NCBI GenBank assembly: GCA_000310025.1
Contig: FN648038.1
Location: 157,126-221,125 of the forward strand
DNA length: 64,000 nt
DNA from: Ectocarpus siliculosus
Lineage: Eukaryota; Sar; Phaeophyceae; Ectocarpales; Ectocarpaceae
Reading direction: 5' to 3'
This document shows positions 1-37,920 of this stretch, one piece after another. The notes under the pieces were generated by a model. The model was given only the letters and a program-made list of their open reading frames with translations, did no database searches and was not told the origin of the DNA. Position 1 is the first letter of the stretch; every line of letters begins with the position of its first letter. Position numbers and translations under genes: made by a program.

Positions 1-423
1 CCCTGACTGGATTCAGCTGGCTTGTTAGCATAGAAATAGAGAGGGGTGACGAGTTTCAAGGGAATAACTATGCCCGTTAGGTGTCCCGAGAGGGGCTTTC
101 TCCGTCAGTGTCTCACTCTATCCCTAGTCATCTATTATCAGAAATATTGATGAAGAAATCCGTTACTTGTGATTGGTCACCAGGCAACTGCATCTCCGAT
201 ATCGTCGGGGCCATCATCGGCATCCCCAAATTGTAGTACAGATTTGCATTCCACCAAACAACGGGATGTAGCGTTGATATCTGCTTGGAATGGGTACGAG
301 TACCGGTTTCACGTTCGAAGAAACCTCACGTCAACGGTGCTTCGCCATCGAAACCTGGACTCTGTTGTATTGCCACTGTAATACTCCCAGCAGTGAAGAC
401 GGCAGAGAAGCCACGTGTCATAC
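1..423 (-). other. Start of intron 1 of the left-edge glycosyltransferase-like gene
   Basis: This stretch follows the GTATGA donor of the exon at 424-774 on the minus strand. In the paralogue at 25 kb the matching first intron is about 800 bases, so the second exon is expected beyond the window edge. I see no coding segment resembling the paralogue's exon 2 here. Confidence 0.6.
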
Positions 424-774
424 CTCCGGAAGCAGACCTCCTCCAACAACCTTGGTACGCCGAAAGCACGTTGATGCATGACGTGGTATCCGAGGTAGTG
501 GGTCCGCATTGCCAACAGCCTCTGCTCTGTAGATCACCAGGTCCATGCCCTTCCGCGTGTTTTCGGAGCAGGTCGTAGGCCACTTCGACAGCGATAGCAT
601 CGCATCGTTTACGTCACCATCGTATACCGGAACGACGACGGCCAATACATTGCCATGCCAATCTTGAGCAGGGTAGTATGTATATGACCAACGGGAGAGC
701 AGGTTCGGGTACAGCATCCACACGCCCAAGGTACAGAAGCTTGAAGCTATGGCGGATAGCAAGGCGTACCGCAT
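424..774 (-). CDS. Glycosyltransferase-like protein, first exon only (gene cut by window edge)
   Basis: The ATG at 774 opens a 117-codon exon ending at a CCGGAG|GTATGA donor in phase 0, exactly as in the paralogue at 24653-25018. A hydrophobic stretch near residues 6-26 looks like a type II signal anchor. It is followed by LAVVVPVYDGD, the SKWP motif, the MDLVIY segment and a terminal LLPE, all shared with the paralogue. I chose the Met at 774 because it aligns with the paralogue's start; the frame stays open upstream to 1092, so a longer N-terminus is possible. The family role (Golgi glycosyltransferase) is inferred from the full paralogue. The rest of the gene lies to the left of the window. 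Confidence 0.75.
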
Positions 775-12713: not shown

Positions 12714-15700
12714 TCAACTCGTTCTCGGTGTCGATTCTTCTCCGTAGTGCTCGGATTCTTCATTTGTGATTGTCGCCAAGTTGGTAGCTACTGCATCACA
12801 CTGAGCAAAACTCTTGATTGCCCTGTAGTCTGCCAAGTACTGCTCAAGCAAGGCTGGATCATCTGGGGCATAGCGCCGATTGACCTGGCAGACCCGTTCC
12901 AGTTTTCTCAGATCCGGACGCCAATCGCCAGCTCGAGCGTCGCGAGGATCCGAGGCCAGCCAGTGGACAGCGTCATGCATGTGGTGCCTGAGGCATATGT
13001 AGAGGTCATCGCAACGTTAACAGTTAAGCGTGCAATTCGAGTCGGAAACAATGCATTCGCACATCCATAATGTACCACCTACCAGTTTGTATATACTTGG
13101 TGCCGAGAACGGAAATTTGGCCTGGCAATTACGTTCATCTCCCATGGGACATCTCATAGGGAAAAACCTGTCGACGCCCCACGTCACACGGGCTTCCTAC
13201 ACTACACGGGCATGGGGGCCGCCTGCCCCTAGGAAGGCGTAAAGCGTGCTCGTGGGAGCATCGGACAGGTAACAATTACCCGACAAGAATCCACAAACAG
13301 CCCATAATGGCGTGTCCCCTGCACGGGCAGATATCTCATGTGAGAAACCTGTGCTCGGGCAGAGGTCTCTTGTGAGAACCTCCCGAAACGTCTTCCCGAA
13401 ACGCCTGGCGTTCTTGTATATATCGCTCTATATTCACTACAATAATGACATTGCTTTGAAGCGGCCGTTGCAGACTCCGAGGGGCTGGCGTGTACTGCCG
13501 ATGGTGAGATCCAAAACAGCTTGAACTGAGACCCTTTGGAGATCTGCAAGAAATGAAATACTAGCTTTACACCCATGGACGTGCAAGTGGGAGAACCTGT
13601 GCGTCCCATGTGACTTCCGCGTGTGATGTTCGGCGCAATGTGCCACCGGATGCCCAACGCGTTCCATGGGAGTCACCATTGTTGATGAGACCAATGGGCA
13701 AACAAGACCTGTCGTGGCCTTTTTGATTTCGCTCTTGAGTGAGTGACTTGCCTTACGACAACAATGGTCCCTGAAACGAAGGTGTCACGCGAGAGGTCTG
13801 AACACAACATGTATTAGGTACGGAGTGGCGGTGCTAACACATATTCTCGATTAATGGTTATCTTCATGTTGTTCCGCTCTATGCCCGACATCTGTTTGTG
13901 TTCACAGCCAAAGGATGACACCGCGGGCATGAGTGCTAGATTTGAGAACGTTTGATATTGCGATGCACGATCATCGGGTTGCGTGTTGCCTGCGCTGCAG
14001 GACCGAGAAACGAGGCGGTTTTGCATCGGACAGCTAGCAGCCACGGGCCAAGAAATAGTACTGCCGTATCGCCAAGAGGAGGAGATGTCAAACTAAAAAG
14101 GTGTAGTGGTAAGCATGTGACGTCTATATCACAAGTAGCCAAATTGCCAAGTTGCCTGGTTCCACTGGACTGGCGGGTCGTCTTTCGATATCCCCCGTCA
14201 GTCGTTCACACAAGCGGGTAGAATCGAACTTTTCCCCCACAAACATGATGTATCTTCATTGGAGGGGCCACAAAAACGTGGCCGATGCTCAAATGATAAT
14301 CATACGCACTCAAGCACACTTCGGGCATCATTCACTAATGGCGATTCTAGAGGAAGTCGGTGGAATTTTCTCAAAGTTTGCAAGGTTTGTCTTTAGATTA
14401 TGCTTCCGTCATGCTGGCGAGGCTGTCACATTTTCGGCATTAGGTAGCCTTAAACCCGAGTAGGTTTACTTTCCAGTGGAAACAATGGCTGTTTTTTTCT
14501 ACTTTCTACAGTACGTGTTCGATCTTATCATTATCTTATTTTTTCGTTCTCGCTGTGTCCTGATAGGGTGCTCCAGTATTGTGGTGGAGCAGCCAGACTC
14601 CAAAGCAACACTTGACCTAACGCAAGGGTTCAGCACTTACCACAAATATGCTCCGATAAAGTTGGAATCAGAAAACATCAAAGCTCTCTCGTCTTGTGTT
14701 CTCTCGGTTTCGGTGTTAGGGTGCATGCAAGACCCGCGTCGACTAGCCATGAAGTCGACGAAGGGCATCCCGTGGTGCTGCTCAATGAACTCCCGAGCAG
14801 CTGGGTACCTGAGAAAAAAATTCCAGTTGATGAAGAGCACCAATTTTGGTGAGTTCATCAGGTTGTATATACCTTCGGACATGCGTAAAGCGAGCCTGCA
14901 GCAACACCACAAAACCTACGTGTGTTGAGTTCACATTGGAACCAAACTGTCCGATTGCAAATGGAGCCATCAGATTGTTTGGTGTCATTCAACGCAATTA
15001 GAGAGGCCGCCATTCTGATCTTAGAGCGCCTGGAGTTTTCTGAAGGCTTCTACCATGCCTACGCAAGCATGCCTACGCAAGGTGTTGGATGCTGCTGCCG
15101 TTTGTTGCCGGAGTATTCTCACGAAGCTTGTAGGCCATGTTTCGAGGTAATGGTCATTCGAAGGTCAAGTCGCTCAGGTCGCACAAGATAGAATGCTGAT
15201 GCTACCTAGCAGTTAAAGACATTGTTGAGCTGCTTCGTGCCCCATGCGATATCGCCTCACATGGATCGTGGGTACAAGTGGGTGTTCAAGACGCCGAAGT
15301 CGTGGATGCGGTCCTCCCCAATGGCGGAAGATATACCGCTCTCCCAGCACATGGTCTCCGTCCACCCTGGTAAATGCGAAGGTTGCAGCAGTTGCTTGAT
15401 ATTTGGAAACTCGAGAAAATGCTGCAGAGTGTCCGATGTGGGGTGCATTCCGAAAATGGTACGCATTTTCAATATTCTCGTCTCGAATTTCATCAGATGG
15501 GGCTTTAATCACTAAACAACGATGTTGAGAATGTATTATTGCTTGTACGCTTATCTACGGCTAAGGTGGAAAGGAAAATTCGAACCAAGCTTTTTCGTTG
15601 TCGAAGACGGTGGTCTGTTTTACTCGTTGGTCTATAAGCAAGCGGGGTTTGCTTTCATTCTAACGCGGGGCAATATTTCGGATTTCAAGCATAGGAGACG

Positions 15701-18700
15701 ACACAGAAATGGTCTTGATAGTTTGCAAGCGCATCTAATTTGGAAAAACGGAGTGCGGACACCGTGGCAGCCCCCAGCAGAACGCTCGTGCGGTTGCGTG
15801 TCTCGAGTGGTTTACCTTCCAATCGACGGTTCTCGTATCGTCGGAACGGCAGGACGGGCTTGCCAAGATGAAACATGTGCGCGAACGACAGATCCTGGAA
15901 CACGACCGCGTCCGAATCCAGGTGCAAGATGTAGTCCCCTTCCGTGTACAAGTCAGCCCGTAGCTGCAACGTGGTCGACAGGCAAAGTCGATGCACGGAA
16001 ATTCAAAGTCAAGTCGGTTGACATTTGTGAAAGTTCCAAGTCGGAAAGGAGGTAAAACAACGAGATTCAACAACGTGCGAGCAGTTGAATATTTTCCCTG
16101 TTTACATTGTTCGTTCTGTCATTGCCACCAGGGTACGCACACCAACCATTACGAAGTGACTTCCCTGGAGGTTAATGTTGTGGCATACAATTTATGACGA
16201 GAGGTGCGAGACAGAACTATGGGCAACTGATGTACACGAAAAAATATCGCCCCTTACACGGCCGTCAGTTGCGTGTGTGCACGGCCAGACAGACAAAAAA
16301 TAACACACACACACACATACACACACACGTTTCTTTTGAGCGTGTCGATCGCTGTCGTGTAGGCTGCAGACGTTTATTACACCGCCAAATCGTTACTGAC
16401 GTTTCTCTCACCTTCGAGTACTTTTGCTGAAGTTTACCGTCCATTAGCTCCGGCTCTCCGATGACACGAATGGGAAACGGTGCGGCGATCCGAAACGGTT
16501 GGACGATGCTCTCGAAAAACCCGACGTCGGCTTCCGCAACAACGACAACCACCTCAAAGGCGCTTGAAACGTGCTCGATCACAGTAGCGATCGAAGCGTT
16601 GAATAGCTTTGCATCTCCGACGAACGTTCGGTACATAACCGTAACGTCGTAGTCGAGGAACTTCGGCACCTTTTGTTCTGCTCGTTGGACGCTGAGCTGC
16701 CGGTTGGCCTTGACGCTCAAGCTCGACACCTCAACTGCTTTAAAGCCTCGCTCACACGATGCCCCCAACTTGAAAGCTTCGAGCTCTTTGGCGAGTATCT
16801 CTCCCATATCGTACCCTTGGTTTCCCAGAGACCTATCGAAGGAACATCCGAACCGCGGCTTCACCATCGGGACGTCCCAAATCGAAGCCTCCGAAAAAAG
16901 ATTTTGGTGACTCCATTCGTTCATGTTGACAAACGTCACACCAGGTGGACTGCGGGAATAGGCCAAAGCAGCAAGCACCTGTGACAAGGGACAACCAACG
17001 ATATCGTACGTGCAGAAATTCGCGCTCGTGGTTTTTGGCTGACGGAGCGATCACCACCAAACTCTACTCGCGTGGGCATGCTACGACGGCACCTGCTGGG
17101 TGTTCACCAGAGCCATGTGTGGTTAGATTCGGGTCGTGTTGTCTCTCTCCATCTCTGAAACTTCATCAGTGGTACACGAAGGCCTGCCTTGATTTCGAGC
17201 GTGAACGCTTGCATGCTGATGAAACAAGATTCTATCATCAACAGTTGGCATTTATGGAGATGACTACAAGACAATGCCGGTTGTGCGTAAACCATGGATA
17301 GGCCATTACATGGCGTGCACCAAATGCCAGTCGCACCTACCTCCGGAATATTAATTATGGCGGAGTCCTTGTGGGTGCTCGCCACGTCGGCCAAGTACTC
17401 GTATATCCTTTCCACCCGGTCGGAGTGGCCATGCTTAGCGTCTGTGCGTGCCACCAGCTTCTGATTGCCTTCCAACACAGCTCGGAGCTGTGCGTTAGTT
17501 TCCGCCGGGAGGATGAGATCACTCCCATGAGTAAACGTCGGCGTGGTTACCCCTAAAAGAACCGAGCTGCCCATTCCACGGGCTGCGGTTGGTTGGGGGA
17601 CTTCATCTGTGTTGACAAGGGACACAATGAGATCCCCCGTGACCGTGTGCGTGTCCTTCTTCGTAAAGGTGCGACTGAGCATCTCCCCGGCATCCATGTA
17701 GTAGATCAAGCGTGTTCCTTCGCCACAGATATAGTCCGCGACCAAAGGCCCATGCTCAACGTTGGTCGAAGTTCCAACGGTGACGTTAGGAAGGTGTCCG
17801 AACGTCCTGATGTTTACAAGATAGACACCACAGCAGTCACCGCAAAGAACGTTGAATTCACTCAGAGGCAGGGGTGGAGGACGTGAGTACCCGGAAGGAA
17901 AGGCGAATCTGTTCCGCATGATACATGTACAATAACTCGAAATTAAGCCTCCGAGGACCATCGGAAGGCTGACGATATACATGGAACCATCGAAGAAAAA
18001 GGTCGTCAATCTTCATTGTGGTATAGAAACACATGTGTGGGACCTCGGGGGAAAGCGCCGCTCTTCGGTAGGTCACGGCATGTCAATGCCCCTCTGCATT
18101 TTCTAGCTCCAGTACTCCAGGAAAAGACGCGTAATTGCCGCGTGTTTCTACAGGGGGGGGTTATGCAGTCTCTTCGTGGGGGTTCCGCCATCTAGGAGCT
18201 ACGGCCTTTGAAGTTTTTGTAACCTTGAGAAACTCTGGAAACACCCCATCGAGGCACCGCTCTGTGCAAAGGGCTTTCCAAGCAAAACATTAAACACGCG
18301 TGTACTCGGGAGGGTGTGACCGTCCCGGGTCTACCGATCGCTTGTGCACCTACTCGAGACAGTTTCCAAAATTGTGGCCGACCTGTTGAATTCTTCAAAC
18401 TCCCGTGGGTGTGTTGTGATCCCGATCCGCATTCCCGGCATGAACTGCAGAACGCTCGACACGGAGACCTTCATCATTGGCAGCAGACGGGAATACCCGC
18501 GCATGAAAGCGCATATGTGACCGCGCGTGGTGGTGCCGATGTATTCCGTCGCGGCTGGACCCTGACTCTCCTCGTCCCCGGAAACAATCTCCTTGTTGTT
18601 ACGCTCTTGAGGAGCGGGGGCTACCAAAGTCGGGCCATTGCCGGCATCAGCGCTACCGTGCCCGTTCTCCTCTTCCTTGTCGTTCGTGTACGACCCAATC

Positions 18701-21700
18701 GGTGGTGGGGGCTCGTGGGTGTTGCACATAACGACCCTTCCGCCGTGGGCCTTGGCGAATTCATCCGCAAGATGAGCCGCGGGCAACTCATTGAAGCATA
18801 GCCGGCACGTGCTGCCAAGACCCCTCCAGTCGCAGTTGAAGTCCCCATACCGCCCGCTTCCGCAACGATAATCACACACCTGAGCAGACCGCAACCGAGA
18901 ATCAGACGACGAGCTTTATCGTAAAACGTGTGTTGGAACACTGCATGACCATGATGTATTGCGAGTTATGCATACATCCATGCTAAATACGTGTTGTCGG
19001 TGGAAGCTTTCTCGCGTAGTCATTGGAGAAATACATTATCAAATTGAGAACGCCCGACCTTCGCCGTGTGGGCGCTTGGTGAAGAGAAGGACTCCTGTCT
19101 GAGGGTAGACAGAGGAAGCAAGTGAAGGACATGCCCCCCTCGGGCGGTCCGTCCGTCTCTCTCTCACGCTTTCTCTCTCTCTGAACCAGTTTCTTCATAC
19201 TCTTGGCGCCTCTGCTCCTCATCTACCCGTGTTATCCACCGACCCCATACGACAAGCAAGCAAGACAACAACTCGAGAAAGTGTTGTGGTCTCTACGTGG
19301 ACGTGCTCCTCATCGAGTGCACAGTTCCGTGTGGTCCTACCACCGATCTTGCTGCTGATGGGTACAAGCTGGGCTAGCCAAGAAGCTAACAAAATGGTTG
19401 AAAGCCAATTACACCACGATTTTATACGAGTTGGAACCTGAAATTTTGACATGTCGTTCGTATTAGTACAACAAATACAACTGCTAGCCGTACTTCATAT
19501 TTTTGGTGTGTTTTCATGAAGTATCCCTATTAAAGTAAAAATGGGAATCGTTTTGTTGTGTATAGGAGGACCAAAAACTAAAAAATTAAATGTACAGCTA
19601 GCTGTTGTATTGGTTTTAACAATACCAACCACATGTCAAAATTTCAGATTCCAACTCGTAAAAATCGTGATGTACTTTTAGATAACCTCACATGCCCGTA
19701 ACTATCTTGTGTTTTGTATCCGATTATTTTCGAGGCCGTAACTCTGATGGAAGATGATGTGAGCCTTGCAACTACCATCATTTTTCTCGCAATGCTCCCA
19801 AGTAAGCGCACACCAAATTTCAGCGAATTCTGTGAAACTTTTTTTTTCATGCTGATTTCGGTACCGAAAAGTATCCCCCACTACGCCTCCAATCGATCGT
19901 TTAATACCTAAATCAACTCGGATTCGAAAATTTTTGGCATCTTCGTTTTCCCTATTGTCTCGTAAGAGTAACCACCAAATTCCAAGCCTATTTTCGTGGA
20001 AATGACAGCATGAGACGCGAAACAACGAAAGTGAGCTTCTTGGCTGGCCTAGCTTGTATTGTACGAGCTTGACGGCTTCAATACAAGCTGGTTCACGCAA
20101 GAAAAACAAAAATTGTTGCCCGCGAATCCTTCGCCCGCTTTTTTGGAGATAAGTCACCAAATTTTGCACACTTGTCCGCAGGGTCGATCCCAAACTTTTC
20201 ACGAGTGGGGTTTTCGAATTTTTTTTATTCGCCGAATAGTCGGGGTCCCGCACGTTCGTGGGACAGAAAGGCTGCGCTGGACCCTGAATATTCGGTGAAT
20301 AAAAAAAAAAAACGAAAACCCCATACGAAAAAGTTTGATATCGATCTTGCGGACAAGTGTGCAAGATTTTGTAACCTATCTCCAAAAACCCGAACGAAGG
20401 ATTTGCCTTTTGTAACAAGAACCTGAAATTTCCTCTGCGAACCCCATATTTACTTGGATTTAGACTAATATGAGCTTTTTGGGCACAACTTTACGCTTGA
20501 ATCGACCGTTCTAACTCAGTTTCGCCGCTTGGGCAACAAATCTTTGTTCAATCCTTCAACGCCGTACACCGGAGCCGACCGAATTCGATTTTTTTATTTG
20601 AGACATGTATACCAGCTTCCGGGGGTCCTATCCGTGAGACCCCGACAAGCCGGTAGGAGCGGAAAAACTTCGTGAATACCACGTTGAAGCATATTTTTTC
20701 GCATTCGTAGCATCAATACCTGTCAAGCTGCCAAATTTGGGGACGATCCAATCTTTCTTCAGATATATTCGACGGAAACCGTTTCGATGCTTTCTGGGGG
20801 GTTGCTCCGCACAAACGGCGGCCATCTGACGACGCCAAAGGGCCACAACACCGGAATCCCACCTTTTTTGGCGTAACTCGCACCAAGGGTGGCCGTTTTC
20901 GCTTCTGTTTTTTTTGTTGGATTCCCTAGAGCTCGAAGGTCATTTGAGGTTGAACTCCGGCCGAAGAAGGTTCGTGATGCATTCGTATTTTCAGTTGTTA
21001 ATTCTCGAACAGTGTAAAGGCCGCTGAATGGCCAAGACACGTTAGTGCGCCTACTAACCACCGTAGAATGGTGTTCTCGGAAATTCCAGCTATTACACTG
21101 TCCTAGGCTAAGCGTGGGGGTCACGATGATATAAGTATGTGTTGATTGGCGAGTAATTGCGTTCATTATCAGTGGGGGAACAAATTTGGGGTTTGTTGCG
21201 TGAACCAGCTTGTACTTGTTCCCGCCGACGGGGCTGGTGGAATACTGAAAAGCCGTCCACGCAGAGCAGCGTCCCAAATGGGTTCCGAGTCGACTCATGT
21301 TAAACAATGATCGTTCTTTTTCTTCACAGCCTCCTCGTAAAAATTAAAGGCGGGGAGCGGTTGAAAGAAATGGGGCAAGGCGTGAAGCTACGATGATTGA
21401 AACCCTTCATGGCCCTCCTCGACTTCGACGAGGTGGGACCCTAAACCCTGCCGTACACGTTCGCGGCTCGGATAACAACCGCCGCCGTGAGGATTCGTGT
21501 CCAATGTCTACCCCAGGCCCACGAATGGAAGGAAGAGTCTCACCGTATCCGAGGCGTCCTGGCATGCAGTTGTGCAGCTCGAAGCCGGGGGCGGCTGCGT
21601 GGTGTCGCACATCACCACATGCATATCTGGCTTCGAGGGATTCGCCGACGCCGACGCCAGCTTGTGGTCTGCGACCAAGGCTAGCTCCTCGTCCGTGTAG

Positions 21701-22921
21701 CACAACCTGCAGGTACCACCGAACTGCGATGGGTCACCCGCGCCGCAATCGTGACCGCCCAAGCGCGGTCCTGCCGGCGACCAACCAGTGGCGCAGCTTT
21801 CGTCACAAAAGGTTGATACGCCAGTCCCGATCTTGCCCGAAAGTGCCGACCCACAAGCGCTGGTACAGTCAAGGCTATTGCCATCGATGGAAAGTGCTCC
21901 CATTGGACGTCCGAAGTGGTTGATGGAATGCGCGAGACTCCCTTCGCTTTGAGAACTGCCGTGGATGAACAGCGTCTCCTGTGCAACGGCCTGTGCCACA
22001 TGCTGGTCGCTGACGTCGAAGTGTCCAACGTTCGTAATCTGTGGTAACGAGCAGAGGTTCGGTGGATCACCAAGGGAAAACTAGCTTCACCTCTGCAGTG
22101 TAACGCCTAGTTCCCGTTTGGTCAAGTTGGTCTGGTGGTAGTCTACGCTTCACAGGTAGCTTGCACTCTTACAAATTGTGAGGTCGCTCTCAGGATCAAC
22201 AGTTGCATATTCTCCTTTTGAATTTCCTCGACAAATTTTCTGGGGCCCACGAGGAAGACTTGACCCATAAGACATGATCCGCGCGGCATCAAGCCTCCGT
22301 AGAATCCTGAAATGTCCCTGCCACTACAATGAGAAAAAAAACACTACGACCCAAGCTTCAACGAGTAAACCGGGCCTATTCCGCGTGACTCTCCAACATT
22401 GGCTTCATGCCATGGCATGCAAAGTGCTGTGTGTCCCTAAACTATTCTGCCAGAGCAGCGGGACTGCAGGATGAGAATTAAACGTCGGCGTCGGAACCAA
22501 CAAGTCTTCAGGGCCTGTGGCCATCTCCTAATTCTTCCGTTTCGCAATGTATTGCCAAATTTGATTTCTATCGAGGGTGCCTACTGGTCAATCGGATACC
22601 CGAGAGTCCGTTGCGAGAAAAGCACAGACGGCACTTGCATACAACGGTAAGGCCCATACCAGCTTCGTTGGGACGAAGAGTGAAGAGTATCGCTGCCAAA
22701 GCATCCAGCTGTAGGGGAAATCCGACAGCGTGGCCCACAGCGCAACGTCATACCTGACAAATTGTGAAACACGGGCACGTGCAAAACATATGTATGTGTG
22801 GCCATCATCTTTGTCTAAAGTCACGAGACGCCAGTCCACACCCACGATGAATACCGCTGTCACGGGCCCATGTGCTCAGTATCATTTCTCTGTCTCTCGG
22901 CCTATTTATGTGTCTGTCTAT

Positions 22922-22957
<36 letters not shown>

Positions 22958-25018
22958 TTTCTCTGTCTCTCCAACTCTCTTCCCCTCTCTCTCTCTTCCT
23001 CTCCGTCTCTCTCCTTGTCCTTCTATCTCGTCACTTTCACTCATCATCTTCGCCCGGAACAGTTACACCACATCTTCCACATCCATGATCAGTGCAAGTG
23101 AACACGACCACAAGCATGAGTATGGTGGATTCCGCGTGGCATCTCGACAGTGTTCATCGGAGCAGTCAACCGGGAACACTTACGAATAGGAGAGATCCCA
23201 CTTGGCGAGAGTGAAGTTTACGAACTGGGTGAACGCTTGGTCGGTGTTGTTGTCTGTACAAGCACGTTGGAGGGCGCCGTTCGGACAGACAGATGGATAC
23301 ATCAGCCTCAACAACGACGGAAACGTTCAGGATAATCGCGCAACTTGAGATGAATAGTGGATTGTTGACATGGTGCATAAAAATACATGAAGAGAACACA
23401 GCTTCCAAACAAAGAGCGATCAAGACGGATGAAGTGGGTCGCGCACAGCTAATGACCTCGTACAATACTCTCAGAGCTGAGTAGATGCCCAAGAAGCACC
23501 CAATCGACCGTTTTGTCAATTTCACACAGATCCGTGCTTGTCATCGGTCGAGGTGGACCCTCGATCGCTCACATAAGGCGTTGCCGTTGAGGTGTCCCAG
23601 AACGTGCCACCTGTCCGGCACTCTTGCGGCTGAATGAAACTCAGTGCCAGCTAGAGTGCTCCCCTTCATCCAGAACGGCTCAGAGGTAAAGGCGGCGTCG
23701 TATAGCTTCGAAAAACTTGTAGGATGAGCCACCAACACATCCCACTCAATGATGGCAAATGCATCGTATTCTTCAAGAGCTCCCACCACAACGGGGTCGA
23801 GGTACATCTTGTAGAACATTATTGAAGCCCCTGTCGGGTACACGTTCTCCTGCCGTAAAAAGGGTGTATATCATGCAATATGTCCACGGCAAGAGTTGGG
23901 TGGAAGCAAGAGGGAGTGAAACGTTGGATCTCTCGACACGCCTTGACTGCGAGGTGTTCTGAAGGAGCACAGGGCTGATGTTTTCATTGCCCCCTCCAGC
24001 CTCAAAGGCTGTCATCATCAGCACAGCAGTGCAGGCGAGCAGATGAGCAATGCATTGTCAACAAAAAGAAAGAATCAACATGTCGGCGGAAAAAATGAAA
24101 AATGGACTAAGAAGTACAGCTCAGCCGAGGATCCTACACCATGTGAGTAAAATCAATACAATCCAGCAGCGTTGTATTTGTAGCTTGTACGCGATAGTGG
24201 TGACGAAATGCGAAAGTCAGGCCTCGACCCGATTTCGCCGTCTCTAATGTATTGGCCGCACTGAACCAGCGTTCGGGATGTTACATGGAATGAACCCGGC
24301 GGCCTTCACTCATTGACAATATTTTATTGATCCAATGATCCGTGCGTAGCCTTCGGGGTCCTAGATTGTCTGCGGCCTGTCGCGGGAGATTTAACGAGCA
24401 TGACGCGAGCCCTGCGGAAACAACATCTACAATACTCTCAGCGTAGACATTGTGAACCACCAAATCACGACGTCTCCCTCTCCCAATGAAATACCAGCCC
24501 CGGACCCGTTGTAGAAAAAATTCGATATGTCCACGTCGTTGCTTGGCAGTCGTGGGGATATTCAACGTCAAGAGCTCCACGACTAGCGTCGAATTCGGCC
24601 TCGGACGCTGTATGTATACAATAGCACACATGAAGAAGACGGGCGTACATACCTCTGGAAGAAGCCTCGCGTCAATAATCTTTGTTTGCCGAAAGCATCT
24701 GGATGCCTGATGTGGGACCTGAGGTAGGTTGTCGGCGTCCGCAAGATCTTCGGCCTTGTAGATCACCAGGTCCATACCATACAGCGTGTTGTCGTGACAG
24801 GTCTCTGGCCACTTGGACAGGGCTCTCATCGCATCTTCTTGGTCGCCATCGTAGACCGGCACTACAACGGCCAGTAGCTTGTCACGCGAAGCTCGACCAG
24901 AGTAGATGCTCTTCACCCCCCCAGCCCTCCAAGCCCGCACGACCGCCACCACCACGCCGAGGGCATAGCATGCGGCTGCTGCCGCTAGCAAGAATCGGAT
25001 TTTCCCTGACCATAGCAT
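12714..25018 (-). CDS. Large type II membrane protein with three glycosyltransferase-like modules
   Basis: Twelve exons join with matching phases: 24653-25018, 23573-23849, 23184-23253, 22660-22753, 21544-22038, 18383-18879, 17341-17806, 16412-16978, 15816-15963, 15261-15366, 14641-14808, 12714-12987, giving about 1175 residues. Residues 7-27 form a signal anchor, pointing to the Golgi. Module 1 (about 40-310) has VVVPVYDGD and the acidic EWD at 157-159. A Cys-rich region (about 325-492) contains two copies of a CRLC...VVMC...PPP unit. Module 2 (about 553-790) has GEGTRLIYYMDAG with D638. Module 3 (about 867-1100) has the metal-binding-type LHLDSD with D960 and D962, like nucleotide-sugar transferases of the DUF6492 kind. 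Donors are mostly GTATG, GTGAG or GTAAG. The sugar substrate cannot be told; a cell-wall or glycoprotein role is inferred. The C-terminus could be altered by a missed last intron. Confidence 0.82.
13141..13607. repeat. Degenerate interspersed motif (GAGAAACCTGTG type) in an intron
   Basis: Within intron 11 of the glycosyltransferase-like gene, words like CATCTCATAGGGAAAAACC, CATGTGAGAAACCTGTG, CTTGTGAGAACCTCCCG and AGTGGGAGAACCTGTGCG recur at about 13150, 13335, 13367 and 13585, often next to CGGGCA or CCCATG. They look like remnants of a small repeat with palindromic CCCATGGG-like ends. Confidence 0.4.
16296..16330. repeat. AC-dinucleotide microsatellite
   Basis: An (AC)n tract interrupted by one T lies in intron 8 of the glycosyltransferase-like gene, about 80 bases after the exon end at 16412. 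Confidence 0.85.
19410..19674. repeat. Foldback element 1
   Basis: The left arm (about 19410-19507) and right arm (about 19571-19674) are reverse complements with few mismatches. Matching words include ACGAGTTGGAACCTGAAATT on the left against the complement of AATTTCAGATTCCAACTCGT on the right, and ACAACTGCTAGC against GCTAGCTGTTGT. The loop is about 60 bases and AT-rich. No coding capacity was seen. It lies in intron 5 of the glycosyltransferase-like gene. Confidence 0.8.
20121..20408. repeat. Foldback element 2
   Basis: The left arm (20121-20248) and right arm (20277-20408) are reverse complements. Pairs include TTGCACACTTGTCCGCA against TGCGGACAAGTGTGCAA, and TTTTTGGAGATAAG against CTATCTCCAAAAA. 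The arms contain matching T and A tracts and the loop is about 28 bases. A second small perfect hairpin (AGCTTGTATTG at 20051 and CAATACAAGCT at 20079) flanks it. It lies in the same intron as foldback 1, but the arms are a different sequence. Confidence 0.8.
22923..22956. repeat. TGCC tetranucleotide microsatellite
   Basis: About eight uninterrupted TGCC units are followed by a CT-rich tract to about 23030, all inside intron 3 of the glycosyltransferase-like gene. Confidence 0.9.
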
Positions 25019-30616: not shown

Positions 30617-30704
30617 GAGTACACCCCCCCCCCCCCCCCCCGGGCCCTATTTCCCAACGGGGCCCTCTCCCGGAAATGGGAATAATTTCTTTAGGTTTAC
30701 TAAG

Positions 30705-30804
30705 NNNNNNNNNNNNNNNNNNNNNNNNNNNNNNNNNNNNNNNNNNNNNNNNNNNNNNNNNNNNNNNNNNNNNNNNNNNNNNNNNNNNNNNNNNNNNNNN
30801 NNNN
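30705..30804. other. Assembly gap of exactly 100 N
   Basis: The run is exactly 100 N, the conventional placeholder for a gap of unknown size. Sequence on both sides is of visibly poor quality; see the following entry. Confidence 0.98.
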
Positions 30805-31335
30805 GCTGGAAAAACGGGTTCCCGTTTTTTTTTTTGCTTTGGGTTTGTTTTTTCCCGGAACCCATAAATGGTGGTGGACCAGATTTTTTTGTGGGGGGTG
30901 GATGATCCTCATTCCGGGAAAGGGGGGTAATCGCCCCACGTTGTGTAAAGTGGGTCAAGCCCCTTTGGGGGCAGTTACCCAGGGTTTAAAATTGTTTTGG
31001 GAAGGAAAAGGCCCAAAAAATTTTTTAATTCATACGCGGTTTTCATCCGTACGCAGGGAAGAAAGCCCAAGATCCCAAACCCCCTTCCCGGGAGGCGGGG
31101 CCCCCTTCATGGGATTCGCGAAATCCCCCAGGGGGTTTCGCGTTGGGGGAGGGGGGACCTGGGTCCAGGGAAACCCGGGGGGGTTCCGTCCGGGTTTTGT
31201 GGGGAGGAAAGGTAAAGGGTTTAAGGATTAGGGCATGTTGGATTAGGAGTACCCCCCCCCCCCCCCCCCCGGTGCCATATCTCCGACCGGTGCCATCTCG
31301 CGGAAATGGTAATAATTCATTAGGTTATACTAAGG
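30805..31335. repeat. Probable false duplication: poor-quality second read of 30178-30704
   Basis: 30805-31250 follows 30178-30616 base by base in order, with differences concentrated as single bases overwritten by their neighbour (for example CAGCTGTCATCCGTACG against CGGTTTTCATCCGTACG). Conversely, the bad sequence at 30616-30704 just left of the gap follows the clean 31252-31335 in the same way, both ending TACTAAG. The two flanks therefore look like the overlapping ends of one locus rather than two repeats. Confidence 0.75.
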
Positions 31336-32963: not shown

Positions 32964-33201
32964 TGTTGGAGTAATTGCGGTACAAGAACGACTCTATTCT
33001 ACTGCATGGGTTTATGCGGTATTGTGAAGGCGTTGCCAAGTCTGTAACCGTCAGGTGAAGACAGCTTGGGCGTCTGTGTGGATAATAATATCACTCTGTG
33101 TGTTTGCCTACCTAACCTCGCATCACATGCCAGCTACTTTGTAGCCACAGCTGAAGGAATAGCTGTACAGCAACTGCAGTGACAGTGCTGTTGCCTCAAC
33201 A
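32964..33201 (+). repeat. 5' LTR of the copia element
   Basis: It starts TGTTGGAGTAATTGCGG and ends CCTCAACA, with the standard TG...CA ends, and is 238 bases long. The copy at 38200 differs by one extra T in a T-run. Confidence 0.95.
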
Positions 33202-33216
33202 GGTTTATGAGCCTCG
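33202..33216 (+). promoter_or_regulatory. Putative primer-binding site
   Basis: GGTTTATGAGCCTCG lies directly after the 5' LTR where the tRNA primer pairs. The sequence resembles sites used with initiator methionine tRNA in copia elements only loosely, so the primer is not assigned. Confidence 0.35.
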
Positions 33217-33259
33217 AGTTGCTCGAGCTAGTACACCAGAGTCACAAGCGTCGGTAAGC

Positions 33260-34349
33260 ATGGCTACCGGCTCGTCAGGCGAGATCCGAAGAGGATTCGC
33301 CAAGTTCAGTGGTGACCCAGGCGACTACGTCGGCTGGCGAACTCTGCAGACCTCCTTATTTATGGAGGACAAGCTGCACAAGGTTCTGTTGGGAGTGGAG
33401 AAAGCCCCTACGGATCCTGGACCAAGCGCTACGCCAAACCAGACTTTGGCATACCAAACTGCCCTGGAAGGATACCAGGACAAGAACGGACAGATCTTTA
33501 CCCGGCTGATGCTCGCTACATCTGAAACCGGGGGCTACCAGAGCGCGGCCTCACAGACTGTGCAGGCATACGCGCCTATCGGGTCTTCCTACAACGGAGA
33601 CGGTCGTGGAGCATTCCTCGCCCTGGAACGAAAGTACCAGGCCGCTGGGGTATACCGTACGCAGGAGCTGCACGAGAAGTTCATATCTTTGGCAGTTACT
33701 GCGGACCACGACTTTGATCCGGCCAATGGTTATTCAAGACATGCGCCGGATCTGCACGGAGCTAGCCGTGTATAACGACACGGTGGCTGACCACCGAAAG
33801 ACGTTCGCTTTCCTGAAAGCACTGCCGGACGACCACTACAAAGAGTTCAAGACAGGGCTGCTGTGCGGCCAGGCTGCTGGGAGCGTCTTGTCCTTCGAGG
33901 AGGTCGCCGACCGAGCCACTTCGTTCCACGCGATGCACATTCGTGGTAAAGTTGCCTCGAAGAACGCGTCCGGAAGCAGCAGCCGTGCGCTGAATACCGT
34001 CACACACGGTGGAGCGCGTTCTTTCCGTAAGGGCGGCGGTCATCATGGTCGTGGACGCGCGCAGCGCGGTGGACGCGGACGTGGCAGCTGGAACAACTCG
34101 TCGAACCGTAACAACGGGTCGTCGAGGGGGAACAACAGCAACGACCAGAACCATGGCGGCGCAACTTCTGGCAACGGAGCTGGTGGTGCGTCTTCCGACA
34201 ACCGGCCCTCTGGACGGCCAAACCACTCACAGCAAAGACGCGGGTACGACAGGGACGGCTTATGCAGTTACTGTCACAATTCTACGGAACACACCTGGAC
34301 GAACTGCCCCGCTTCGCGCCTCCAATGCCACGCGGTTTTCGAACCGTGA
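33260..34349 (+). pseudogene. gag: copia gag (capsid and zinc knuckle), frameshifted
   Basis: The likely start is the ATG at 33260, followed by the GFAKFSGDPGDYVGWR segment typical of copia gag N-termini. The frame shifts near 33730 and continues through MRRICTELAVYNDTV, an Arg/Gly/Asn-rich nucleic-acid-binding stretch and a zinc knuckle CSYCHNSTEHTWTNC (spacing C-x2-C-x5-H-x4-C, one longer than the usual C-x2-C-x4-H-x4-C). The frame stops at 34349, with the downstream frame taking over near a T-run at about 34335. Confidence 0.85.
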
Positions 34350-36290
34350 ACAACAGCAACCGCAGCAGCAGCAGCAGGTCAACACGATCGCGGAAGCCAC
34401 GACACAGGCGTGGCTCACGCACGCGCGCGAGGTCGACCTCACGCTGGAATCGTTCGACATCGCCATAGGCGATCCCGAGCAGGTGCCGTTTGCGCCTGCT
34501 GCATCGACCCCTGAGGAGGCGTCCGATGTCAATGTAGGGCAGGTGTTGGCTGCGCCTGCCACAGCTTCGCTACCATTGTTGGAACGTGCTGTCCCATTGC
34601 AGGTGCCGATTGCGCCTGCCACAGCAGAGGAAACCGAGGAGCCTGCTGCCTCCTACGAGCAGGAAATGGACCCGCCTGCCGCGATACAGCATGAGGAGCT
34701 GGTCGCGTACACCAACGTTTTTCGTGCAGTGGACAAGACAGCGCCCGCCGAGCATACGAGGGTGTTCATCGACACCGCCGCTTCGGGACACATGGTAAGC
34801 GGCGAGAGCCCAGTCTCACAACATGTAGTCGACTTGGTTGACTGCGACGTCCGCATCAAGGGTTCGTGCGGCACATCCAGCGCCACCAAGAAAGGTACGC
34901 TGAAGTTCAAACTCAAGAATGACAAAGGTCAACCCGTCCCGATAGAATTGGAGGTTCTGCTTGTGCGGGACCTTGGAGCAAACATATTTTCTGTCGGAGC
35001 GTTGGATGAGAAGGGGGTGAAGACGGATCTACTTTCGGCACCTCCGGCCCTGCGAAGCCGGAACCTGTCTTTCCCCATATCAACAGCAGAGGTGCCTCGA
35101 ATGTACGTCGTGAATCTCATCCTGGACGACCTGAATCTCGACCTGCCTAGTTCTCCGCTGGTTTTCCGTGCCGATACCGATGCCGGTGTCTGGCACCGGA
35201 GGATGGGACATTGCAATGCGCGCGCCCTGAAGCAGCTCTCGGATAAGGAAGGCACCGGCATCAAGTTCATCACCAACATTCAACCAGGTGACTGCGAAGT
35301 GTGCGATGTATCCAAAAGCAAGAAGGCGAGTCACCCCCCGGTTGGCCGCGCCCGTTCACTGACGCGAATGATGCTTATGCATCTCGACCTGTGGGGAAAA
35401 CATGGTGTGCCATCGTATAGCGGATGTCAGCATATCGTAATGTTCACCGACGATAAATCTCGCATGCGGTGGGGCATTCCCCTGAAGACAAAGGATGGAG
35501 TGACTGACGCGCTCGAAACACTGATTAAAGAAGTCGCCGATCCCGAGGGCATCTGCATCGGGAAAAATCCATTGCGATGGCGCAGCCGACTTCAAGGGTA
35601 GGTTCTTAGCAATGTGTCGGTCCTTCGGGATCGCTGTGGAGACAAGCCCCCCGTACGTCCCTCAAGGGAATGCTGTCGCCGAACGCGGTTTCGGGACCGT
35701 CATCGGTGCAGCACGTAGTCTCATGCTTGGAGCTCCGCACCTACCGCGTCAACTGTGGGGCGGAAGCCGTGAAGGCCGCCATTTACATCAAGAACCGCAC
35801 ACCTACTGACGTCCTGGACGGCAAAGCACCACTTGAGGTTTGGGAGGACAAACCACTCGGCAGCTTGAAGCACATGCATGAGTGGGGGTCTGTAGCGTTT
35901 AAACACGTAGAAGCTCGCTCGCGAAACGATAAGTTTTCTGCCAGGGCCAAGAAGTATTACATGGTGGGATACAATACAACCAGCAAGACGTGGCGGCTAT
36001 GGGACCCGGCGGAACCACTCAAAATTACAAACTCTGCTGAAGTGTCATTCCGCGAGGTAGATGCCTGCGACGTCGCCCGCCCCATGCACGGGTCTGACCC
36101 ATTTCCCGAACAAGGCCAGATTTTCCAGCCCGGCATCATCACTACTGGGGCCGAGACAAAAGACGAGGAACCAGAACTAGCAGAAACGAACGACGGACCG
36201 GACGAAGAACCACCCGCGGTGCGCAAAAGCGGTCGTACGACAAGGCCGCGGGACCGTCTGAACCTGTTTACGACGGAGCAGGTGTTCGAA
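34336..36290 (+). pseudogene. pol: copia protease and integrase region, frameshifted
   Basis: The region opens with a Gln run and an acidic Pro/Ala-rich linker. The aspartic protease motif IDTAASGH lies at about 34768. The pre-integrase zinc region is WHRRMGHCNA ... CEVCDVSKSKKASHP at about 35191-35335. The integrase core begins LMHLDLWGKHG with the first catalytic Asp. The frame breaks at an A-run near 35562, continues with DGAADFKGRF (second Asp) and PYVPQGNAVAERGFGT (catalytic Glu), and breaks again at a G-run near 35758 before AIYIKNRTPTDVL. It ends in an acidic linker with KSGRTTRPRDRLNL. Confidence 0.88.
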
Positions 36291-37920
36291 ACGGAATACG
36301 CGCTGGTGATCGGAGGTGAGATCGGGAACCTTGGTCAAGGGATACCTGGCCAACTAGGATACATGCCCGCCGATCCACCGAACTACCGCGCAGCGGTCAA
36401 CGGACCAGATGCTGTTGGATGGATGAAAAGCATGGAGGAGGAGAATCGCTCCTTGCTAGACCACGACGTTTATGAGTGGGTCGATCCCCCGTGCGATGCT
36501 CAAATCATCCCGTCAAAATACATCTACAAATGGAAGTACAACGAGGCCGGCATCGCTGTGCGACAGAAATCGAGAATCGTAGTGCAAGGATTTTACGAAG
36601 CTGAGACCGGAACCGACAATGCTGCACCGGTAGCGTCTCTCCAAGCCGTCCATCTGATAGTTGCGCATGCAGCCAAGAATGGACTTGTTCTTCGCCAAGC
36701 CGACATCAGGACGGCGTTCCTCCACGCGAGGATGGAACCGAGATCGAAACCAGTGTACGTCATTCCCCCGGAAGGATTCTCGTGCGACAGCGGGAGAGCC
36801 AGGCAAGTCTGGAAGCTCAGAGCATGGCTTTACGGGTTGCGTTTTTCCCCAAAAGGCTGGTGGGGCACTCTGCACGACTTTCTCCTGAAGATCGGATTTG
36901 TTGAGAGCACCGCTGAACCGTGCTTGTACATCCTGGACGACGGAGATGTGCTCCTTCTCGTTTATGTGGATGACATTCTGCTGACCGGGGGAGGGCGAGA
37001 ACAAAGTGCTGAGCATAGTCGATCAGCTGAATGAGCGTTTCGAAACGGTGGACCTGGGAGGAGCCAGATTCCTACTCGGTATGGGAATCAACCGAGACAG
37101 AGCCGCAGGGACGATTCTTTTGGAACAGGAAGCGTATACCAACGCAGTGTTGGACAAGTTCGGCATGGCCGACGCGCGTCCGACGACATCTCCGTCTGAG
37201 GCTGGACCGGTGTCCGTCTTGGAGGACGAGGTGCTGTCAGCGGAGGATACCACATATTTCCGCTCCGCCACAGGCTCGCTTCTATATCTCAGCAGGTGCA
37301 CAAGGCCCGACATTACTCACTCCGTAATGGTTCTGACGCGGAGTATGGCGAAACCAGGTCCGAGGGCGATGCAGAAACTCAAACGCGTACTCAGGTACCT
37401 GAAAGGTACGATATCAATCGGTGTACGCTACGGCGAGGACGCCGGAGATGGAAACGTCATTACGGCGTTTGTCGACTCAGATTTTGCAGGCGACCTAGAC
37501 AAGGGCTACTCCACCACGGGAGTCGTGTTGTACTTCGCTGGTGGACCGGTGGAATGGACATCATCCAAGCAGACGGTGGTGGCGACCTCTTCCGTTGAAG
37601 CAGAGTTCGTGGCTTTGTCGAAGGGGTGCAACATCATCAAGTACTTCCGCCACCTGCTGGACACCATAAATCAGACTCAGGAAGAAGCAACCGTGGTGTG
37701 GGAGGACAACTCGGGAGCTCTAAAATTAACTCGTAGCTTCCGTATCACCCCAAGGACGAAGCACATTGACGTAAAGTTTCACCACGTAAGGTCGCTGGTA
37801 GCTGATGGAGTCGTAGACGTGAAGCAAATATCGACGTCGCTTCAGAAAGCGGACATTTTTACGAAAGGGCTAAACCCGTCGGAGTTTCTCCGCGCCCGTG
37901 GCATGCTGTTAGGAGTTTGA
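36291..37920 (+). pseudogene. pol: copia reverse transcriptase and RNase H, frameshifted
   Basis: Reverse transcriptase features in order: WMKSMEEENRSL, PSKYIYKWKYNEAG, RQADIRTAFLHARM (first catalytic Asp), PPEGF, LRAWLYGLRFSPKGWW and the YVDDILL active site at about 36963. The frame breaks at a G-run near 36988 and resumes with ERFETVDLGGARFLLGMGI. RNase H shows AFVDSDFAGD, TSSKQTVVATSSVEAEFVAL, WEDNSGALKL and KHIDVKFHHVR. The stop is at 37918-37920. All catalytic residues are present, so only the frame is lost. Confidence 0.92.

What the first reader, a model, noticed from the sequence alone, without database searches (positions are those of the whole stretch)
12714..25018. One protein with three glycosyltransferase-like modules and a Cys-rich insert
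Twelve exons with fully consistent phases give a type II membrane protein of about 1175 residues. Three separate GT-A-like modules are recognisable: an N-terminal one with EWD at 157-159, a middle one around YYMDAG (D638), and a C-terminal one with LHLDSD (D960, D962). Multi-catalytic glycosyltransferases are known (for example hyaluronan and heparan sulfate polymerases with two domains), but a three-module layout with a Cys-rich spacer is, as far as I know, not described. It could assemble a repeating or branched wall sugar.
Basis: partly seen in the sequence, partly recalled or inferred. Interest (0 to 1): 0.75.

Follow-up and report, generated by a model that had tools for sequence, protein, structure and literature searches.

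The report
Multi-module sugar-transferase gene family in alga
The stretch holds one long, real gene of a probable brown alga for a membrane-anchored protein with two recognisable sugar-transferring modules, a cysteine-rich spacer and a third module of unknown fold; it belongs to a gene family that the standard protein-family library used here does not recognise, so it may be missed by routine surveys of cell-wall genes.

Summary
Three own-genome paralogs share all 11 splice positions and phases, and exons 5, 6 and 8 each bridge neighbouring parts, so it is one gene. It belongs to a family of at least 13 loci. Module 1 is homologous to a bacterial family without a Pfam model (99.7%); a predicted structure of one bacterial relative is GT-A, best matched by the GT8-type domain of LARGE1 (Z 15.5). 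Module 3 is related to DUF6492 (97.4%, E 1e-11) and keeps DxD. Module 2 is not shown to be a glycosyltransferase: D638 is not conserved, no relatives were found, and its fold is untested. Probably a Golgi enzyme with two transferase sites, a disulphide-rich spacer and a non-canonical middle module. Three glycosyltransferase modules in one chain are already known (PBCV-1 A111/114R, WbbB, WbdA); I found no description of this combination in the papers searched. New variant of a known kind.

The parts
24653..25018 (-). exon 1 (residues 1-122): signal anchor and start of module 1
   Evidence: paralog exon 1 in C56 and C42b
24935..24994 (-). hydrophobic anchor, residues about 9-28
   Evidence: by eye on the translation
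23573..23849 (-). exon 2: carries E157-W-D159 and most of HLNGNALY
   Evidence: ExD kept in 11 of 13 family loci
23184..23253 (-). exon 3
22660..22753 (-). exon 4 (YDVALW..., D240)
21544..22038 (-). exon 5: end of module 1 (LFIHG, H295) plus Cys repeat 1; bridges module 1 and the Cys insert in one open frame
18383..18879 (-). exon 6: Cys repeat 2 plus start of module 2; bridges the Cys insert and module 2
17341..17806 (-). exon 7: core of module 2 with YYMDAG 635-640
16412..16978 (-). exon 8: end of module 2 plus start of module 3; bridges modules 2 and 3
15816..15963 (-). exon 9: LHLDSD 957-962
15261..15366 (-). exon 10
14641..14808 (-). exon 11 (FSDSNFIGAYLW)
12714..12987 (-). exon 12 and stop codon
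21946..24886 (-). module 1, residues about 45-300 (exons 1-5): GT-A by homology, GT8-like
18712..21867 (-). Cys-rich insert, residues about 327-490: two copies of a C-x3-C ... C-R-x-C-[FY] ... VVMC repeat
16754..18534 (-). module 2, residues about 550-830: fold unknown, no DxD
12882..16648 (-). module 3, residues about 866-1120: DUF6492-like with DSD
421..738 (-). part of exon 1 of the neighbouring same-strand paralog C42b, whose other exons lie outside the window

Best explanation
The locus encodes one type II, probably Golgi, membrane protein with at least two glycosyltransferase sites. Module 1 binds a nucleotide sugar and metal through E157-x-D159 and, by analogy with GT8 enzymes, H295, and transfers the sugar (a GT8-like fold suggests retention of configuration). 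Module 3 does the same through D960-S-D962. The duplicated, probably disulphide-bonded Cys repeats are a rigid spacer that holds the two sites apart. Module 2 is most likely not a classical metal-dependent transferase but an acceptor-binding or scaffold part. The two active sites would add two different sugars in turn to an acceptor of the secretory pathway, as LARGE1 or WbbM do. Shown here: the gene model, the family, the homology of modules 1 and 3, and conservation of the motifs. Inferred: Golgi location, disulphides, catalysis, donors, order of action and product.
For: One gene; exons 5, 6 and 8 each encode parts of two neighbouring regions. Module 1: profile-profile match to 27 bacterial domains, 99.7%, E 7e-26 over 238 columns. 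A bacterial profile matches window residues 49-288 at E 6e-17 (one-protein database). The AlphaFold2 model of the L103 relative has pLDDT 89 and pTM 0.89. Foldseek best is XXYLT1, E 1.1e-6. VIA-align: LARGE1 Z 15.5, UGGT 14.0, GT8 3tzt 13.7, glycogenin 13.2, LgtC 13.0. E138 and D140 are invariant in the 27 and align with E157 and D159. Module 3: hhalign to 14 DUF6492 domains, 97.4%, E 1.1e-11, DSD in register; DSD invariant in the 6 sequences of A3. Every module and the Cys insert show dN/dS of 0.36 or less against C56.
Against: The module 1 fold is of a bacterial relative, aligned at 23% identity, not of the window protein. Two of 13 loci have lost ExD (EPV, EWN), and C109 reads MQLEVG where others have LHLDSD. 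DUF6492 matches stay below Pfam's cut-off (19.6 and 18.4 against 22.9 bits); only 3 of 6 A3 members match it, and the window's own module 3 is not among them as shown by its row. The PF20102 model run on the own genome finds a different gene (C101) and none of this family. Module 2 is untested. No expression, localisation or activity data.
Confidence: 0.6

Rival explanations
1. All three modules are active GT-A transferases, each adding one sugar, as proposed for PBCV-1 A111/114R.
For: Module 2 is about as constrained as module 3 (dN/dS 0.36 against 0.34 with C56). A non-significant hhalign places the LIYYMDAG stretch of module 2 on the LHLDSD strand of module 3. Three-domain GTs exist (PMC7826918).
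Against: D638 column D,E,N,E,S,K,E,K in the 8 sequences, with an invariant Gly at the second Asp. hhalign probability 0.2-0.3% to module 1, module 3 and the bacterial family. No relatives found.
Confidence: 0.15
2. Only one module (1 or 3) is catalytic; the others are inactive regulatory or binding domains kept for assembly.
For: Motif losses in single family members (EPV, EWN, MQLEVG). For two paralogs (C38b, C20) no module 3 core was found in about 3.0 and 4.6 kb downstream of module 2.
Against: In this gene both ExD and DSD are intact, and both modules are conserved with dN/dS 0.21 and 0.34 against C56.
Confidence: 0.2
3. The locus is two genes, for example module 1 with Cys repeat 1 and Cys repeat 2 with modules 2 and 3, read as one.
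For: The 2.66-kb intron 5 is the longest and lies between the two Cys repeats, the one region boundary not bridged by a single exon.
Against: The same order, strand, junction and phase recur in C56, C42b and C112, and the order in C26 and C109. C38b and C20 keep module 1 and module 2 together on one strand.
Confidence: 0.04

Closest known systems
LARGE1 (GT8-type + GT49 dual transferase; family numbers recalled)
   Same: Two transferase activities in one Golgi protein (dual role: PMC9746966, start of abstract; Golgi type II recalled); its first domain is the top VIA-align row for the module 1 relative (Z 15.5).
   Different: No Cys repeats or module 2 (recalled). No significant sequence match of modules 1 or 3 to any PDB chain, LARGE1 included. 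Not aligned directly.
Unnamed bacterial family of module 1 (27 full domains found here, e.g. L103 Saprospiraceae, L067 Hyphomonas)
   Same: Full-length domain homology; shared ExD, H-x-NGNA-x-Y, the Asp of YD and a nearly invariant C-terminal His.
   Different: In the loci examined it occurs without modules 2 or 3, in some with other domains (glycosyl transferases group 1 in L124; weak MptE-like and CST-I matches in L111 and L071). No Pfam or NCBIfam model found.
DUF6492 (PF20102), bacterial
   Same: Profile match to module 3 with DSD and the preceding QQ...K helix aligned.
   Different: Below Pfam's cut-off; the alignment covers A3 columns 5-193 of 260.
PBCV-1 A111/114R
   Same: Three putative GT domains of about 300 residues in one polypeptide (PMC7826918, abstract and passages).
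   Different: Its modules are described as GalT, XylT and a GT-B-type FucT. I did not align it.
WbbB and WbdA (O5) O-antigen polymerases
   Same: Three GT modules in one chain (PMC11231755, passages).
   Different: Bacterial enzymes of other GT families (GT99, GT102, GT103 for WbbB); not compared by sequence.

Membership tests
GT-A fold (module 1) | GT-A fold | tested here: met
   Model of the bacterial relative L103, pLDDT 89; Foldseek E 1.1e-6 and VIA Z 12-15.5 to GT-A enzymes in the rows shown. Met for the relative; for the window by homology.
GT-A fold (module 1) | DxD or equivalent metal motif | tested here: met
   E157-x-D159; EWD in 9, ESD or EAD in 2, lost in 2 of 13 loci; E and D invariant in 27 bacterial domains.
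GT8 (module 1) | match to the family's sequence model | tested here: not met
   No Pfam family at E up to 10 for the window protein in its 13-exon version, which contains all true residues; no GT model for the 8 members of A1 (E up to 10) or the 27 of A4 (E up to 0.1).
GT8 (module 1) | C-terminal His that binds metal (recalled feature) | tested here: inconclusive
   H295 in LFIHG is kept in 8 of 9 spliced members and aligns with the nearly invariant H283 of the bacterial family, but its role is not shown.
DUF6492 (module 3) | score over the Pfam cut-off | tested here: not met
   Best 19.6 against 22.9 bits; 3 of 6 members match at E up to 10; the model finds none of this family in the own genome.
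DUF6492 (module 3) | profile homology with aligned DxD | tested here: met
   hhalign 97.4%, E 1.1e-11, 173 columns.
GT-A (module 3) | GT-A fold | not tested
   No intron-free relative from a permitted source was found; weak GT2 match E 0.011 in one of 6.
GT-A (module 2) | DxD motif at D638 | tested here: not met
   Column D,E,N,E,S,K,E,K, then x and an invariant Gly.
GT-A (module 2) | GT-A fold | tested here: inconclusive
   Exon 7 alone folded without an alignment: pLDDT 50; not searched further.
Three-domain GT polypeptides (A111/114R type) | three GT domains with activity | not testable with these tools
   Two of three modules have homology evidence; activity cannot be tested here.

The most novel reading that the evidence does not exclude
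A multigene family of brown algae makes wall or secreted glycans with a single Golgi protein that carries three donor or acceptor sites: a GT8-like module of bacterial kinship, a middle module that founds a new GT or glycan-binding fold without DxD, and a DUF6492-like module, held apart by a duplicated disulphide repeat. Being outside Pfam, it would be a missing enzyme family in models of fucan or matrix-glycan synthesis.
Probability: 0.15. Interest if true: 0.75.

Novelty: new variant of a known kind. Interest (0 to 1): 0.45.

Why it matters
Many glycosyltransferases that build brown algal matrix polysaccharides are still unidentified (general knowledge; PMC11468063 calls for functional work on fucan candidates). 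That 2024 survey counts CAZymes in brown algae by known families (section 5 and searched passages seen). A family of at least 13 loci in one genome, none of whose tested module sequences passes a Pfam cut-off, could be overlooked by such surveys. It gives concrete candidates and testable active-site residues, and it points to a bacterial glycosyltransferase-like family for which I found no Pfam or NCBIfam model.

Tried and rejected
My 13-exon model was rejected after reading paralog DNA. Pfam and NCBIfam scans of that 13-exon protein found nothing up to E 10; the 12-exon protein was scanned only as module alignments, where A2 gave two chance-level matches (APD1-4_N 0.0099 and CAP_assoc_N 0.28, one member each) and A1 two (0.2, 0.24). 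PDB sequence searches with window module 3 and with A1, A2, A3, A4 and A5 gave nothing or only insignificant matches. Viral scans with A1, A3, A2 and A6 matched 90, 69, 35 and 193 stretches by pattern, none confirmed; a module 2 motif of mine matched none. Profile A2 found nothing in 299 and 296 genomes and one weak match in 292 genomes of a third phylum (E 0.0013), rejected as chance after reading its 135-residue ORF. These empty answers are weak: the sister profile A3 found the DUF6492 locus in only 2 of 16 genomes known to have one, at E 0.005 and 0.05. PF20102 was not found in the 20 genomes. A4 on 299 genomes of the phylum of L080 found only that locus's own genome, so the module 1 family looks sparse. 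hhalign found no relation among modules 1, 2 and 3. Exon 7 alone folded with pLDDT 50 and was not searched. PHROGs had no match for L040 or L103. A111/114R, WbbB and LARGE1 were not aligned by sequence. In C38b a weak exon-12-like match (E 0.012) lies just downstream of module 2 although no other module 3 exon was found; I could not explain it.

Papers: PMC7826918 abstract and passages; PMC11231755 passages; PMC11468063 section 5 and passages; PMC7457493 one passage; PMC9746966 search listing with the start of its abstract. Searches for a description of this architecture; for DUF6492: (0 papers). I did not read the other listed papers.
Full report
WHAT IS THERE. The gene lies on the minus strand, from ATG at 25018 to the stop at 12714. 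My first model had 13 exons and 1263 residues. Comparison with a paralog showed that exon 4 ends earlier and joins directly to the exon beginning ITNVGHFDV, and that exons 6 and 7 use nearer splice sites.

ONE GENE. The window is G000:C42:157126-221125 of a 189.5-Mb, 492-contig assembly. tblastn with the parts of the protein finds the same exons in the same order elsewhere (the queries were from the 13-exon model). Spliced alignment gives full-length paralogs on C56 and next door on C42 (C42b, which enters the window at 421-738), a near-complete one on C26, intron-richer ones on C112 and C87, and one with all parts on C109. Some of these alignments contain forced stretches: stops occur in the aligned translations of C56 (1, at the very end), C87 (1), C38b (2) and C20 (3). 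All 11 junctions agree in position and phase in C56, C42b and C112; 10 of 11 in C26. Scores of nonsense controls are 119-154 against 4073 for C56. The aligner was guided by the window protein, but the exon-wise tblastn hits and the raw DNA of C56 agree independently. Exon 5 carries the end of module 1 and Cys repeat 1, exon 6 carries Cys repeat 2 and the start of module 2, and exon 8 carries the end of module 2 and the start of module 3. So intron 5 is the only place where the gene could be split without cutting a module. dN/dS against C56 is 0.21 for module 1, 0.24 for the Cys insert, 0.36 for module 2 and 0.34 for module 3; against C42b 0.21, 0.31, 0.33 and 0.26, with 1.78 in the poorly aligned first 44 residues.

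THE FAMILY. Module-1 exon matches give 13 loci: the window gene, C42b, C56, C26, C20, C6, C109, C112, C87 and four on C38; C17 and C474 have exon-1 matches only. For C38b and C20 I found modules 1 and 2 but no module 3 core in about 3.0 and 4.6 kb downstream, apart from a weak exon-12-like match in C38b (E 0.012); the other C38 genes and C6 were not read that far. The genome carries the EsV-1-7 repeat in large numbers (150 scored of 880 candidates, 0 in 14 control genomes). That family is expanded in brown algae (PMC7457493, one passage), so a brown alga is likely but not proven.

MODULE 1. The window protein and the eight family sequences have no relevant Pfam match. A motif scan for H[LIV]NGNA[LIV]Y gave 13 viral and 76 genome stretches. 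The own-genome profile A1 finds a Saprospiraceae protein (L103) at E 1.5e-10 over profile positions 36-254 of 255. 27 of the 76 genome stretches encode a full-length domain (more than 240 profile positions); 6 of the 13 viral stretches carry a 245-residue ORF with a partial match. The set is selected for the motif, but the similarity runs over 238 columns (99.7%, E 7e-26), and the bacterial profile finds window residues 49-288 at E 6e-17 in a one-protein database. Invariant in the 27 are, among others, E138, D140, H-x-NGNA-x-Y and D223; H283 is nearly invariant. They align with E157, D159, H208 onwards, D240 and H295. The AlphaFold2 model of L103:4753-5622 has pLDDT 89 and pTM 0.89. It matches GT-A enzymes: Foldseek XXYLT1 E 1.1e-6 (TM about 0.5); VIA-align LARGE1 Z 15.5 (3.4 A over 219 residues), then the Skp1 galactosyltransferase, UGGT, GlyE, GT8 3tzt, XXYLT1, glycogenin and LgtC. 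These rows differ by little, so the nearest family is not resolved beyond GT8-like, mostly retaining enzymes (recalled). No relevant Pfam or NCBIfam model matched any of the 27.

MODULE 3. The window's own module 3 has only a chance-level Pfam match (DUF3465, 0.02). The best of the six family members reaches DUF6492 at E 5.5e-4, below the cut-off, and one reaches GT2 at 0.011. DUF6492 proteins were found in 16 of 200 genomes; 14 of the 15 loci fetched were aligned. hhalign of A3 to them gives 97.4%, E 1.1e-11, with the QQ...K helix and DSD in register. Against this, the PF20102 model on the own genome finds a different gene on C101 and none of this family. The fold of module 3 was not predicted.

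MODULE 2. It is conserved between the window and seven paralogs (36-71% identity), with KDTH, G[TS]D[LI][IV]LP and S[IV]W[DE][IV]P[LM]VKP motifs. The proposed D638 is not conserved (D,E,N,E,S,K,E,K), and the position that would hold the second Asp is always Gly. No relative was found, but a sensitivity control shows such searches are weak. A non-significant profile alignment puts its LIYYMDAG stretch on the DSD strand of module 3. If that register is real, module 2 would be a GT-A domain that lost its metal site; I treat this as a hint only.

CYS INSERT. Residues 327-486 hold 16 cysteines, with two copies of one repeat (C-x3-C ... C-R-x-C-[FY] ... VVMC-[DN]-T). Each window copy matches the other copy of the C56 paralog in tblastn at about 1e-6. 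The 15 genome matches at E 0.01 or less lie in members of this family (C42, C56, C26, C87, C112, C109).

HOW IT PROBABLY WORKS. A Golgi-type anchored protein carries two sites that should bind nucleotide sugars and metal (modules 1 and 3), separated by a stiff, probably disulphide-rich spacer and a non-canonical middle module that may bind the acceptor. This resembles the two-site logic of LARGE1, described as a bifunctional enzyme making an alternating polymer (PMC9746966, start of abstract). Donors, acceptor and product are unknown.

COMPARISON AND NOVELTY. Three GT domains in one chain are described for PBCV-1 A111/114R (PMC7826918) and for WbbB and O5 WbdA (PMC11231755), so the layout as such is not new. 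In the searches made I saw no description of this combination. The main text of the brown algal CAZyme survey does not hold the words GT8, unclassified or novel GT. I rate it a new variant of a known kind, of moderate interest.

Noticed in passing
window 33155-37917 (+): Open frames that look by eye like a copia-type retrotransposon (gag-like, integrase-like, reverse transcriptase-like and RNase H-like stretches). Described only.
   Followed up: no
window 20122-20406 and 19421-19664: Two fold-back inverted repeats (105 and 84 nt arms, 76 and 83% complementary) inside the 2.66-kb intron 5, possibly small mobile elements.
   Followed up: partly
window about 30704-30805: Undetermined bases (translated as X) at the start of an open frame: an assembly gap or withheld stretch.
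   Followed up: no
L103, L067, L117, L124 and 23 other genome loci: A bacterial GT-A-like family for which no Pfam or NCBIfam model was found; in some loci joined to other glycan-enzyme-like domains; sparse (1 of 299 genomes, the source genome of L080 itself).
   Followed up: partly
L040, L041, L042, L044, L047, L048: Six viral contigs carry a 245-residue ORF of equal length and equal score with a partial match to the module 1 family.
   Followed up: no
G000:C101:80417-82338: A separate gene in the same genome matches DUF6492 above the cut-off, distinct from module 3.
   Followed up: no
G000 C109 paralog (L030): Module 3 reads MQLEVG in place of LHLDSD and module 1 EWN in place of EWD: a member that may have lost both metal sites.
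   Followed up: partly
G000:C38 paralog b (L029:2802-2957): A weak exon-12-like match (E 0.012) lies just downstream of module 2 where no other module 3 exon was found; perhaps a remnant tail.
   Followed up: no
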